Assembly: GCA_014801535.1 (NCBI GenBank)
Contig: JAAVEA010000026.1
Coordinates: 1-64,000, forward strand
Origin: Bacteroides sp.
GTDB taxonomy: Bacteria > Bacteroidota > Bacteroidia > Bacteroidales > Muribaculaceae
Direction of reading: 5' to 3'
Length of the DNA: 64,000 bases
Shown: positions 1 through 5,843 of the stretch, one piece after another
Layout of the letters: each line of letters begins with the position of its first letter
Numbering within the stretch: the first letter of the stretch is position 1
Notes under the pieces: generated by a model
Databases searched by the model: none
The model's input: the letters and a program-made list of their open reading frames with translations, nothing else
Told to the model about the DNA's origin: nothing
Translations under genes and position numbers: made by a program

Positions 1-1134
1 GATATGTATGATGAACGAATCAGAGCCTTTGAGCCGAAAACATATTCTTGGGAATTACGGCAGGCTGAAGGTGTGACTCTTTCTGATCTCAATGAAAAGC
101 ATATTCGCGGTTGCATACGTCTTGGTGTCGAAGGAGGACGAATTCCTGCCAGTGCTTTGAGTGCGCCTATATCCGACACCTTATCGAAATGGAAACTGCT
201 TAAAAATGGCATTCCGACCAATGGCGCTGCCATGCTCTTCTCTGATAATGTTTATGAATACGACAATTTCAAAATAAAGATGGCTCGTTTCTTAGGGACA
301 GATAAGAATGAGTTTATCGATGAGATGCGTGTCGAGGGGAATTTCTTCGACTTGCTTGATGCAGGATTGGCGTTCTGTTTCAAACACCTCAATCTCAGCG
401 GTAAAATCACCAACCGCAGTCTTCAACGCGAAGAGCGGCTTGAGATTCCTTACAAGGCGCTTAGAGAAGCCATAATCAACTCGCTCTGTCATCGTCAGTG
501 GGAGAAATATAATCTGCTCAATAGCATCGCCATCTATGATGACCGCGTAGAAATCGGCAATCCCGGTATCTTCCCTTCTCAGATTACACCCGAAAACATC
601 AAGGAGCCTCACGACTCCTACCCTTATAATGTCAAGATGGCTGAAGCGCTCTACCGTTCTATGTGGTTGGAGAACTGGGGATCAGGAGCAAAACGCATAA
701 TCGAAGCCTGTCAGGAACAAGGTGTAGAAGAACCCACATGGCGTTGGGACGGTGGCTTCGTCTACGTCACTTTCAAACGACCGGTAAAAGCACATGAGAC
801 TGCAAAGGAGAACTTAGGGGATAATGTCGCTCTAAGCACACAAAAAAGTAAGGGAGAAAGTGCACAAGAAAGTAAGGGAGAAGTCCCAAGTAAGGGAGAA
901 AGTAAGGGGGAAAGTTCACCCGAAGTCCCAAGTAAGGGAAAAAACAACCGATCTAAAGTAATTGCACTATTATCTAAAAACGGTAAACTTACTTTACCGG
1001 AGGTAGCTTTATCCCTAAATCTCTCTCTTGGAGGTGTAGAGAAAATTGTGCGACAACTTAAGGCCGAAGGAATACTATCACGTGAAGGTTCTACAAAAGG
1101 AGGAAAATGGGTTCTTGACAATACCAAAGGTTGA
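1..1134 (+). CDS. ATP-binding protein, AlbA/GHKL (HATPase_c_4, RecG-like C-terminal) with C-terminal winged helix; 5' partial
   Basis: ORF open to window edge; ALREAIINSLCHRQW and ENWGSGAKRIIEAC motifs; C-terminal HTH LTLPEVALSLNLSLGGVEKIVRQLKAEGILSREGSTKGGKW; AlbA_2 N-terminus would lie upstream of the window. Confidence 0.85.
   Translation, partial: DMYDERIRAFEPKTYSWELRQAEGVTLSDLNEKHIRGCIRLGVEGGRIPASALSAPISDTLSKWKLLKNGIPTNGAAMLFSDNVYEYDNFKIKMARFLGTDKNEFIDEMRVEGNFFDLLDAGLAFCFKHLNLSGKITNRSLQREERLEIPYKALREAIINSLCHRQWEKYNLLNSIAIYDDRVEIGNPGIFPSQITPENIKEPHDSYPYNVKMAEALYRSMWLENWGSGAKRIIEACQEQGVEEPTWRWDGGFVYVTFKRPVKAHETAKENLGDNVALSTQKSKGESAQESKGEVPSKGESKGESSPEVPSKGKNNRSKVIALLSKNGKLTLPEVALSLNLSLGGVEKIVRQLKAEGILSREGSTKGGKWVLDNTKG
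846..940 (+). repeat. Degenerate in-frame AGTAAGGGAGAA repeats encoding SKGE linker
   Basis: Repeated agtaagggagaa units read directly; translate to SKGESAQESKGEVPSKGESKGESSPEVPSKGK. Confidence 0.85.
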
Positions 1135-1144
1135 TAAGAATCGT

Positions 1145-1396
1145 TATATTTGCAGATGATAAGTGAGAGAACTTGCGAGCAACGATAATGATGATTCCGA
1201 TGGCTTAGGCAGAGCAACGCGATGAAAAGCGATACAATGCGCCATAGGAGCGAATGTTGGAGTTGCTGAAAAACGCCCGGATAAAGAATTGATTCTTAGG
1301 ATATAATAAATGTGGAGTTACCCAAGTGGGACCACTCAATGCGAAAGCAAATCGCGGAAGAATCCTGAAAATCAACGATTTTCGGGATTCTTTCTT
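1145..1396 (+). ncRNA. Candidate structured ncRNA element, copy 1
   Basis: Begins at TATATTTG (Bacteroidetes -7-like); ungapped match to 4249-4439 over 191 nt (about 77% identical by hand count); ends at GAATCCTGAAAAT-caacg-ATTTTCGGGATTC followed by T-rich tract. Confidence 0.45.
1360..1396 (+). terminator. Intrinsic terminator-like hairpin of candidate ncRNA copy 1
   Basis: GAATCCtGAAAAT / ATTTTCgGGATTC stem then tttcttttt. Confidence 0.65.
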
Positions 1397-1649: not shown

Positions 1650-3193
1650 CTAATTTACAATCGTGATATACCGTTGATTTCCACTTGTTGGCTTATCAGG
1701 CTCGGTCATAGCCAAAGTTCCTTCTTCAAGCAATGGATTGATATATCCCTCAATGAAGTTTTTGCGGTCTTTCAAACCCAAGAACTTCATGATCTCTGAT
1801 AAAGTCTTTGGCTCCTTACAGAACTCTAACAAAAGATTTTTATTTTTTTCCTTACGAATAGTCTTATTAGTATCTTGTGGGGTATCTTGTGGGGTATCTT
1901 GTGGGGTATCTTGTGGGGTATCCGTTTTTACTTTGAGTGGAAGAGTCAATACAACATAGTCAGGACGTGTTTCTTCTTCTACAGCAGGTAAGGGTAAACC
2001 GAGGTATTCCCACCCTCTAACAATCTTATCAACACCACTTCCAGCTCTTTCTGCTCCACCTAAACGCATAAAAATATTCTGGAGTATCGGATTACGGCAT
2101 ATACTTCGCCCTCCCTTAAAATATTGTTGCTTTGAAACAAGCATCATTCCAGGATTCCTGAAAACGAGTTTGTCATCCGTTTGTTCTACCACAATATTAC
2201 CCAAAGCACTTATATCGTTGTGAACAATGCAGTTTATCAATGCCTCTCTAACCGCGTCGTGTGCCGGGGTTTCTTCTTGACGAATCCCATCCTTAATCAT
2301 AAAAGGCCTAGGAAGAAATTGTATCATCCTATTATATACCTTTACATAGAATTGATATAGATTTGCCTCCCACAGCCCATCCGGATATATTCGATTGGTC
2401 CATCGAACATTAGGATCGGTAGTTCCTATCTTTTCTCTGTAATCAACAAAATATGAAGGATCAGCAGCGACGTAATACTGTCATAATTACCAAACATTAG
2501 AAGTCCGGCCATTGTCAGCCCCTCCTTTCCAGTAGCATAATCAATGGCGTAAGCACGTATCTTCTTCAGAAATTCAATGTCACTTATTGAGGTCCACGGA
2601 TGGGTTGGCTGTAAGTTGGCAAATGTCTGTCTGTATTGTCTGAGAGAGTCCTTATCAATATCACGTTCTAAATTAAATCCCTCAAGAATCAGACCATCCT
2701 TAGAGTGTCGGTCGTGCTCTGCATCAGCAAACATTCTTCTGACCTCGGCATCAGTACAGAGATAATCACCTTCATGATTTCTTCGGTAGGTGTTACCCAA
2801 AGGATTTGAACCTATATAGACCGGTCTTAATTCATAACTTGCACGGGGAATATAACAGATAAGAAAATAACAGTCGTCAATATTGTCTATTATAACATCT
2901 GACTCACGGGGAAGACAGGCACTCACTTTCCCTCTGTTATGAGCGCAATCCCAAAATATTTTCTTGTATTTTGTTACAACATCTTTGTTTAAACCGTCGA
3001 AATAAAACTGACCGTTCTTCTCAGCCACTCCCAATACAATGGTTCCACCATTAGTATTGGCATAAGCTGAATAGCTTTCCCAAAAACTTCCGGGAAAACC
3101 GCCTTTTGCTGACTTAAACTCAATCTCAGCTGACTCACCAAAACTGACCAAAGCATCTATTTTTTCCTTCAATATTCTGCTGTTATCTTCCAT
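1650..3193 (-). pseudogene. AlbA_2/GHKL ATP-binding protein with C-terminal winged helix, single frameshift
   Basis: ORFs 2426-3193 and 1650-2327 join through ...ITS/AADPSYFVDYREKIGTTDPNVRWTNRIYPDGLWEANLYQFYVKVYNRMIQFLPRPF when the frame is shifted near 2470-2485; no other stops between them. Confidence 0.8.
1875..1924. repeat. 12-bp tandem repeat (GGGGTATCTTGT)n encoding DTPQ repeats on the minus strand
   Basis: tatcttgtggggtatcttgtggggtatcttgtggggtatcttgtggggtatcc read directly. Confidence 0.95.
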
Positions 3194-3480: not shown

Positions 3481-3675
3481 TCAATATACACAGTCGATAG
3501 CATTGACCCTGTATCCAACTGATATGATTACATCCTGACTGAAATATTCAATCATTCGTGTCACTCTACGATTTTCTTCTTGGCGAACTATTCGGAATAT
3601 CCGACCGGTTGCCTTCCTCTTTAGTTCTCCAGAATCGAATATAAAACTCTGTAACTTTGCCAACAATGATGACAA
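3481..3675 (-). pseudogene. RhuM-family (virulence RhuM-like) fragment
   Basis: IFDSGELKRKATGRIFRIVRQEENRRVTRMIEYFSQDVIISVGYRVN resembles the RhuM N-terminal motif (fyNLDmIIaVGYRVrS); truncated. Confidence 0.55.
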
Positions 3676-4214
3676 TTGACGATGTAAAGGCTCTGATTGT
3701 TTCAGATGAGTCGAGGACTCTGGAGTTGAAGAAAAGTACCGGCGAACTGAAAGACGGTATGCATGCGGCGTGTGCGTTTCTAAATACGGAGGGTGGTTGG
3801 CTGATTTTCGGTATCCGCCGAAGTCACTGAAGATAATCGGTCAGCAAGTGACGGATGATACCCAACGGGAAGTTGGACTCTCAGACCGTTCAACTATCGA
3901 CCAAGCAAGAGGACGAACCGCTCAACCACCGACCAAGTACCGACCAAGTATCCCCTAAGCTCGCCCCAAGTACTACAGAAAGTACTATAGAAGCTCTTAT
4001 GAGTTCTATAGAATTTACTAATGGTAATACAGAACATAAGATTATTGGATTACTGAAATTAGATGGATCTTTGACCATAGCTCAACTATACCCACTTTTG
4101 AAAATGTCTCGCAAGGGTGTTCAGAAGGCAATCGAAAGGCTTAAAGACAAAGGAATACTATATCGAGAGGGTTCAACAAAAGGCGGTCGATGGATAGTCA
4201 GTCAGAAATCTTAA
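3666..4214 (+). pseudogene. Internally deleted AlbA-type ATP-binding protein (N-terminal AlbA piece plus C-terminal winged helix)
   Basis: ATG at 3666 reads MMTIDDVKALIVSDESRTLELKKSTGELKDGMHAACAFLNTEGGWLIFGI; frame change to PKSLKIIGQQVTDDTQRE; then directly STKQEDEPLNHRPSTDQ... and wHTH LTIAQLYPLLKMSRKGVQKAIERLKDKGILYREGSTKGGRW; GHKL part absent. Confidence 0.75.
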
Positions 4215-4248
4215 CATGCAAAACAGACAATATGTCAAAATTTTGCGT

Positions 4249-4495
4249 TATATTTGCAGTTGACAAGTGAAAAAACTTGCGAGTAAACTTCAAGAGCATT
4301 CCGATAGTCTCGACTGAGCAGAGCGATGAAAAACTATGCAATGTGCCGTAGGAGCAAATGTTGGAGTTGACGAAAGTATCAAGGATAAATCTTTGATTGT
4401 AAGGATATTCAAAATGTGGAGTTTCCCAAGTGGAACCACAAAATATTAAAAACACTGATTATCAGAGATTAAAACACTGGAATCAGTGTTTTTTT
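4249..4495 (+). ncRNA. Candidate structured ncRNA element, copy 2
   Basis: Same 191-nt ungapped module as 1145-1335, starting TATATTTG and ending GTGGAGTTTCCCAAGTGGAACCAC, then perfect 12-bp terminator hairpin with T tract. Confidence 0.45.
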
Positions 4496-5204: not shown

Positions 5205-5843
5205 ATGGAAATAAAGATATGGGCTGATTTTGCCTGCCCCTACTCCTATATTGGAGAAAAACAATTATTCGATATAATAGATAAATCCGACCTTACAGAC
5301 AAGGTAACGGTTAAATTCCTTTCATATCAACTTGACCCGGAAGCTCCGGTAATCCCTGTGGAAACCATGACTCAGCATTTTATGGAAGGGCATCAATACA
5401 CCGAGGAGGAAACCCAACATTTAATACAAAGAATCACCGCTATGGCCGCACGTGTAGGACTCGACTACAGACTTTCTTCCACACAGGTATGCAGCACATT
5501 TGATGCTCACCGACTAATGGAATATGCGCAGGCCCATCTCCCGCAAGAGACGGCGATAAAGTTGAATTTCGCTATTTTCCATGCAAATTTTATAGAAAAT
5601 CTCCGACTGTCAGACCATGCCGTTCTTTTGTCGATAGCTGAGAAATGCGGATTGGATGCAGTGGCGGTAAAGGAAGTGCTCGATAGCGACATGTATGGCG
5701 AAAATATAAAAGCGGAGGAAAAAGAAGTGGATCAGCGTAAAGATTTCGACCTTATCCCCTATATGGTTTTCAACGATGCCACCGTGCTTCAAGGTGTCAT
5801 CAGTCCGGGAGCGATGAAAAAGGCCCTTGGCCTTGTCAAGTGA
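5205..5843 (+). CDS. DsbA/FrnE-family thioredoxin-like protein
   Basis: MEIKIWADFACPYSYIGEKQL; STFDAHRL motif typical of FrnE-like proteins. Confidence 0.9.
   Translation: MEIKIWADFACPYSYIGEKQLFDIIDKSDLTDKVTVKFLSYQLDPEAPVIPVETMTQHFMEGHQYTEEETQHLIQRITAMAARVGLDYRLSSTQVCSTFDAHRLMEYAQAHLPQETAIKLNFAIFHANFIENLRLSDHAVLLSIAEKCGLDAVAVKEVLDSDMYGENIKAEEKEVDQRKDFDLIPYMVFNDATVLQGVISPGAMKKALGLVK

What the first reader, a model, noticed from the sequence alone, without database searches (positions are those of the whole stretch)
1145..1396. Duplicated ~190-nt non-coding element with promoter-like start and terminator, copy 1: candidate novel ncRNA linked to AlbA/wHTH genes
Seen directly: from TATATTTG (1145) to GTGGAGTTACCCAAGTGGGACCAC (ending 1335) this region aligns without any gap to 4249-4439, about 147/191 identical by hand count. 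Invariant blocks include AACTTGCGAG, ATTCCGAT, GCGATGAAAA, TAGGAGC and AATGTTGGAGTTG. Each copy starts shortly after the stop of an AlbA/wHTH ORF (10 nt here) and is followed by its own, sequence-unrelated, intrinsic-terminator-like hairpin. Fixed length with scattered substitutions suggests an RNA under structural constraint. Inference: a 220-250-nt sRNA co-mobilised with, or regulated by, the upstream ATPase/winged-helix protein. I do not recall a named Rfam family matching it.
Basis: partly seen in the sequence, partly recalled or inferred. Interest (0 to 1): 0.75.

Follow-up and report, generated by a model that had tools for sequence, protein, structure and literature searches.

The report
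tRNA-anchored defence cassettes' shared RNA-like end
The duplicated 190-base element is the shared right-hand end of small mobile cassettes that carry anti-phage defence genes and sit at the 3' ends of tRNA genes in gut Muribaculaceae; it probably makes a small RNA that stops at the tRNA gene's own terminator.

Summary
The reading changes. The last 15 bases, CCCAAGTGGGACCAC, are the 3' end of the tRNA-Met(CAU) gene. The following terminator is not the element's own: copy 1's matches the terminator behind tRNA-Met in a relative (93% over 90 bp). Homologues occur only in Muribaculaceae (31/111 genomes of the genus; 10 of 30 genera in a family sample; none in other families of the order). Divergent members end instead in the 3' end of tRNA-Arg(UCU) or tRNA-Lys(UUU). 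Upstream lie single defence systems: PARIS, Avs4, Hachiman HamB, SIR2-HerA, DRT reverse transcriptases, caspase, GmrSD, or AlbA/Schlafen proteins. Cassettes with both ends visible showed no recombinase gene; tandem copies occur. So the element is the att-bearing right end of integrase-less defence cassettes. A conserved promoter-like start (ATACTA-N15/16-CGTTATATTTGC) supports transcription; covariation does not support a conserved fold. The transcribed part is decoupled from cargo: operons 98-99% identical carry elements 80-88% identical. A recombinase acting in trans is inferred. No transcript was tested.

The parts
1..1134 (+). Cargo gene of cassette 1: AlbA/Schlafen-type protein (HATPase_c_4 + winged HTH), 5' part cut off by the contig start
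   Evidence: Pfam PF13749 2.1e-19 and PF13412 2.9e-6; contig C26 begins at window base 1
1121..1126 (+). ATACCA, variant of the conserved ATACTA box at the -33 position of the element's promoter
   Evidence: 35 of 49 elements have ATACTA (<=1 mismatch) 12-19 nt before CGTTAT, 30 of them at 15-16 nt; control windows 14/245
1142..1153 (+). CGTTATATTTGC: -7 type promoter box (TATATTTG at 1145-1152), left edge of the conserved element
   Evidence: fits the Bacteroides -7 consensus TAnnTTTG
1154..1320 (+). RNA-like arm of copy 1; small 5' hairpin 1160-1164/1171-1175, most conserved block GGAGCRAATGTTGGAG
   Evidence: 54 matches of model R1 in fetched loci, alignment, local folds
1312..1335 (+). Dyad around the att core (GTGG...CCAC with CCC/GGG)
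   Evidence: dyad present in Met, Arg and Lys types
1321..1335 (+). att core CCCAAGTGGGACCAC, identical to the 3' end of tRNA-Met(CAU) genes
1336..1396 (+). Flank with intrinsic terminator (stem 1356-1394), terminator of the target tRNA-Met gene
   Evidence: 90 bp, 93% identical to the sequence directly downstream of tRNA-Met in G068; hairpin
3657..4214 (+). Remnant of a second AlbA gene (N-terminal and C-terminal pieces), decayed cargo of cassette 2
   Evidence: SLFN_AlbA_2 4.6e-8 at 3666-3830 and a MarR_2/HTH match at 3855-4211
4246..4257 (+). Promoter-like CGTTATATTTGC of copy 2
4258..4424 (+). RNA-like arm of copy 2
   Evidence: R1 match 4255-4438, E 8e-42
4425..4439 (+). att core of copy 2, CCCAAGTGGAACCAC (one mismatch to tRNA-Met)
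4471..4492 (+). Intrinsic terminator after copy 2

Best explanation
The element is the conserved right end of a family of small mobile cassettes that integrate at the 3' end of tRNA genes and carry one anti-phage defence system each. Its last ~15 bp are the attachment core, a copy of the 3' end of the target tRNA (Met-CAU here; Arg-UCU and Lys-UUU in other branches). After integration, the tRNA's own terminator lies directly behind the element. A promoter at the left edge of the element probably drives a ~170-180-nt RNA (plus terminator) that runs through the core and ends at that terminator. Cassettes can stack because the right end leaves another usable core, which gives the two copies in the window. 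Shown: the core identity, the three targets, the shared flanks, the cargo, the tandem copies, the promoter motif. Inferred: that the RNA is made, and that integration is catalysed by a tyrosine recombinase supplied in trans by other elements that use the same tRNA-Met.
For: The core equals the tRNA-Met 3' end, with an intact tRNA-Met(CAT) upstream on the same strand in L094, L153, L163 and L164. 16 of 26 right flanks start, just after the core, with sequence that follows tRNA-Met in other genomes, up to 781 bp at 82% (L087 vs L194). Type 2 ends in the tRNA-Arg(TCT) 3' end, with the same terminator at both ends in L143. Type 3 ends in the tRNA-Lys(TTT) 3' end. Tandem copies in the window, L153, L095 and L142. 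Cargo families. No integrase found in cassettes with both ends visible. Tyrosine recombinases lie directly downstream of tRNA-Met in other genomes. The window, L080, L097, L153 and L240 have the element or tRNA-Met upstream of prmC-recX-comF in one order. Promoter motif.
Against: The window's left boundary is missing (contig start), so no tRNA-Met is seen beside these two copies, and the own assembly yields no match to the tRNA-Met pattern. If the whole arm were part of an attP carried by the cassette it should travel with the cargo, but it does not. The left end of cassettes shows no conserved sequence besides a terminator. No recombinase has been matched to these sites. 10 of 26 flanks had no tRNA-Met match at the junction.
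Confidence: 0.77

Rival explanations
1. One reading: an autonomous structured sRNA, with its own terminator, that is regulated by or co-mobilised with the AlbA/wHTH protein.
For: Promoter-like start; AlbA upstream in 25 of 56 loci; arm folds slightly better than shuffled sequence, mean z -1.5 sense versus -1.0 antisense; two truncated copies end in long perfect terminators (L094, L097).
Against: The terminator and last 15 nt belong to the tRNA; consensus fold empty on 46 diverse sequences; many cassettes have no AlbA, and five close AlbA genes with 3' sequence held have no element.
Confidence: 0.12
2. Decayed right ends of ordinary integrase-bearing islands (CIME-like remnants) that piled up at tRNA genes; the cassettes are no longer mobile.
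For: CIMEs lack integration genes but keep att sites and accrete in tandem (PMC5704250); tyrosine recombinases flank tRNA-Met elsewhere; the window's second AlbA is decayed.
Against: Cargo operons 98-99% identical over 2.4-3.9 kb in different genomes with different flanks point to recent movement; most cargo ORFs are intact; the same end recurs in 10 genera with three tRNA targets.
Confidence: 0.3
3. Cargo is exchanged by ordinary homologous recombination between the repeated arms and tRNA ends; no site-specific recombinase acts on the cassettes.
For: Arm similarity does not follow cargo (r 0.07 and 0.01) while promoter similarity does (r 0.58); similar arms sit behind unrelated cargo.
Against: Does not explain first arrival at tRNA genes that carry no arm, nor the exact match of the core to three different tRNAs; sequence identity changes sharply at the promoter/RNA start rather than gradually.
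Confidence: 0.25

Closest known systems
Cis-mobilizable elements (CIME) and tandem accretion at tRNA genes
   Same: No integrase, att cores as direct repeats, tRNA 3' end as target, tandem stacking (definition read in PMC5704250)
   Different: Here a ~165-bp non-coding module with a conserved promoter-like start is shared across cassettes with different cargo and different tRNA targets; cargo is small defence units rather than a decayed ICE or IME
Integron gene cassettes (attC)
   Same: One conserved recombination site at the 3' end of each small cassette, same orientation, arrays, defence cargo (comparison from own knowledge)
   Different: No integrase platform and no attC core; the site is a tRNA 3' end; the element has a promoter-like start and a host-tRNA terminator; the arm does not travel with its cargo
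Bacteroidales rAID arrays
   Same: Co-oriented defence genes with conserved intergenic motifs in Bacteroidales (PMC12247911)
   Different: rAID is defined by a linked tyrosine recombinase and short orphan T6SS immunity genes; neither was seen here
IS110-type bridge RNA elements
   Same: Non-coding RNA at an element end whose sequence includes target sequence (comparison from own knowledge)
   Different: No IS110 recombinase found; the target identity is a plain tRNA 3' copy, typical of tyrosine recombinases

Membership tests
CIME / tRNA-integrated island | Integration at the 3' end of a tRNA gene with a core identical to the tRNA end | tested here: met
   for the window copies themselves by core and flank only
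CIME / tRNA-integrated island | No integrase or transfer genes in the element, att sites kept at both ends | tested here: met
   L143 and L163 (both ends visible) have cargo only; not testable in the window, which starts inside the cargo gene
CIME / tRNA-integrated island | Mobilised by a helper element's integrase | not testable with these tools
   candidate recombinases next to tRNA-Met only
Integron cassette array | IntI integrase plus attC sites with GTTRRRY cores | tested here: not met
   no integrase in cassettes; the conserved core is a tRNA 3' end with no GTTRRRY
rAID cluster | Linked tyrosine recombinase followed by short co-oriented immunity genes | tested here: not met
   cargo is single anti-phage systems with no linked recombinase in the cassette
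Known Rfam RNA family | Match at or above the gathering score | tested here: not met
Structured RNA with conserved fold | Covarying base pairs | tested here: inconclusive
   1 of 23 predicted pairs covaries; no consensus fold on the diverse set; 5' hairpin kept with other sequences in L148 and L149
Transcribed RNA gene | Transcript from the element | not tested
   promoter-like motif conserved at fixed spacing; no RNA data available

The most novel reading that the evidence does not exclude
The RNA made from the element, which carries a copy of its target tRNA's 3' end and is exchanged independently of the cargo, is the targeting or mobility determinant of a new class of integrase-less defence cassettes, that is, an RNA-directed or RNA-templated way of inserting immune genes at tRNA loci.
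Probability: 0.08. Interest if true: 0.95.

Novelty: new variant of a known kind. Interest (0 to 1): 0.72.

Why it matters
How defence systems move as single units between gut Bacteroidales is an open question. A 190-bp signature that marks the right end of such cassettes lets one find them, their boundaries and their cargo by sequence search, including cargo proteins that match no Pfam or PADLOC model used here (for example the 344-aa L085, 284-aa L086 and 465-aa L144 proteins). It also offers a concrete test of whether an RNA takes part in the mobility or upkeep of immune genes.

Tried and rejected
Mini-ORF ATGTTGGAGTTG...TGA with an AGGAG before it: rejected, the frame is stopped in L142 and L145. 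Alternative RNA families: none in Rfam even at a permissive threshold, apart from chance terminator matches. Plasmid and phage collections: no match; IMG/VR: no exact pattern match. Empty-site test with the gene after copy 2 (FrnE/DsbA-like, 5205-5843): uninformative, in relatives that gene is near tRNA-Ser(CGA), not tRNA-Met. Tyrosine recombinase 400 bp after the L158 element: set aside as evidence, it precedes a capsule-type locus and no second core was found. A conserved sequence upstream of AlbA as left end: none found. Pattern hits in Acidobacteria, Cyanobacteria and others are chance, with little or no further similarity. AlbA as the defining partner: rejected as necessary or sufficient.

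Full report
OBSERVATION. The two copies are real and gapless: 147 of 191 positions are identical between 1145-1335 and 4249-4439, with E 7.9e-38 in the own genome and no third copy. No Rfam family fits.

DISTRIBUTION. blastn found the element in 24 of 149 genomes, only in the window's genus. Record titles in GTDB point to mouse-gut Muribaculaceae (Duncaniella and relatives). A sequence-only covariance model, R1, found it in 31 of 111 genomes of the genus and in 41 of 397 genomes and 10 of 30 genera of a family sample. An order sample of 394 genomes gave no match outside the window's own genome. Plasmid and phage collections had none.

THE 3' END IS A tRNA END. While aligning upstream regions I saw a tRNA in front of two cassettes. 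ARAGORN calls tRNA-Met(CAT) upstream, on the same strand, in L094, L153, L163 and L164. The element's last 15 bases, CCCAAGTGGGACCAC, equal the 3' end of that tRNA. By my reading of the table, 16 of 26 right flanks start at the core with sequence found behind tRNA-Met in other genomes (for L153, behind tRNA-Met in the same genome). The longest is 781 bp at 82% for L087, which compares an occupied with an unoccupied tRNA-Met site. One caution: that long flank may itself be a neighbouring mobile element.

OTHER TARGETS. Divergent family members end in a different core. CCCAACCGGATCAC is the 3' end of tRNA-Arg(TCT); in L143 the tRNA-Arg end and the element end are followed by nearly the same terminator. 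CCCAGGCGGATCAC is the 3' end of tRNA-Lys(TTT), and the flank of L220 resembles the flank of that tRNA. In all three types the sequence left of the core forms a dyad with the core, as expected for a recombinase core site, though an RNA hairpin cannot be excluded.

CARGO. The gene directly upstream is nearly always on the same strand and usually within about 130 nt. An AlbA/Schlafen-HATPase-wHTH gene lies within 9 kb upstream in 25 of 56 loci, often followed by another defence gene before the element. Identified systems: caspase (L073), GmrSD (L083, L096), DRT UG24 reverse transcriptase plus DnaG-like (L089), SIR2 + HerA (L157), Avs4 (L153), Hachiman HamB (L082), PARIS AriA + AriB (L143), AbiP2-like DRT (L165), Lamassu LmuB further upstream (L095), and a type II/IIG methyltransferase (L148). 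No integrase was seen in cassettes with both ends visible (L143, L163, L164). Bacteroidetes-type tyrosine recombinases do lie directly behind tRNA-Met in other genomes, so a helper in trans is plausible but unproven.

THE WINDOW'S PLACE. Contig C26 begins inside the first AlbA gene, so the tRNA side is not visible. Order and orientation of element, prmC, recX and comF match L097 and L153, where the element lies between tRNA-Met or AlbA and prmC, and L240, where tRNA-Met itself lies upstream of prmC-recX-comF-pyrE. This supports, without proving, that the window sits at the tRNA-Met hot spot.

IS IT AN RNA? For: the left edge is a conserved promoter-like pair, ATACTA (15-16 nt) CGTTATATTTGC, in 30 of 49 distinct elements at that spacing, against 14 of 245 control windows at any spacing. 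The -7 box fits the Bacteroides consensus TAnnTTTG (a consensus known from the literature; papers using it were listed but not read in detail). The ATACTA box sits where the -33 box should be. Two truncated copies end in perfect hairpin terminators, but both lie next to convergent genes, so these may be theirs. Against: mean folding z is only -1.5 (sense) versus -1.0 (antisense), covariation is weak and the diverse alignment has no consensus fold. I put the chance that it is transcribed and functional as RNA near 0.55.

AN UNEXPLAINED FEATURE. Two genomes can share a cargo operon at 99.3% over 3.9 kb while the element after it is 80% identical (L080/L089). In L073/L158 the spacer and promoter are 100% identical and the arm 83%. 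Promoter similarity follows cargo (Mantel r 0.58, p 0.0005). Arm similarity does not (0.07 and 0.01), while its two halves follow each other (0.80). The most similar arms mostly sit behind unrelated cargo. So the RNA-like part is a module of its own, exchanged at or near the promoter on the left and the core on the right. Homologous exchange between arms is the plain explanation; the sharp change at the start of the transcribed part is what keeps an RNA-based mechanism alive.

CONCLUSION. The finding is the right end of integrase-less, tRNA-anchored defence cassettes: a new variant of known tRNA-site islands and CIMEs, with an unusual conserved promoter-plus-arm module.

Noticed in passing
window 1650-3193 (-): A second AlbA/HATPase/Fic-like_C gene on the opposite strand, split into two ORFs (1650-2327 and 2426-3193), with a 12-bp tandem repeat at about 1872-1920 coding TPQD repeats.
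   Followed up: partly
window 3657-4214 (+): AlbA gene with a large internal deletion, N- and C-terminal pieces only, directly before copy 2.
   Followed up: partly
L231, L232, L240, L241: Arrays of tRNA-Met 3'-half repeats, each with a terminator, some at ~105-bp spacing without cargo and some enclosing 1.7-3.4 kb cassettes: a second class of integrase-less cassettes at the same tRNA.
   Followed up: partly
L198, L207, L208, L086 flank: tRNA-Met remnants behind the tRNA whose anticodon-arm sequence has been replaced.
   Followed up: no
L080/L089, L073/L158, L144/L097 and others: Cargo and promoter nearly identical between genomes while the ~165-bp arm differs by 13-29%; arm similarity is independent of cargo.
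   Followed up: partly
L094 and L097: Truncated elements that lost the core and end in a long perfect terminator hairpin, next to a convergent gene.
   Followed up: partly
L073 (record labelled Clostridia, Mgla_MAG_30): A caspase cassette with the element in a contig labelled Clostridia; probably a misbinned Muribaculaceae contig.
   Followed up: no
window 5205-5843: FrnE/DsbA-like gene after copy 2; in several relatives the same gene has tRNA-Ser(CGA) upstream on the same strand.
   Followed up: no
L144 6280-7674, L067, L083, L095, L099, L167: Recurrent ~465-aa protein (LLLSKLDKKQLADFIRKEC...) with no Pfam or PADLOC match (tested for the L144 copy), directly before the element in several genomes; candidate new defence gene.
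   Followed up: no
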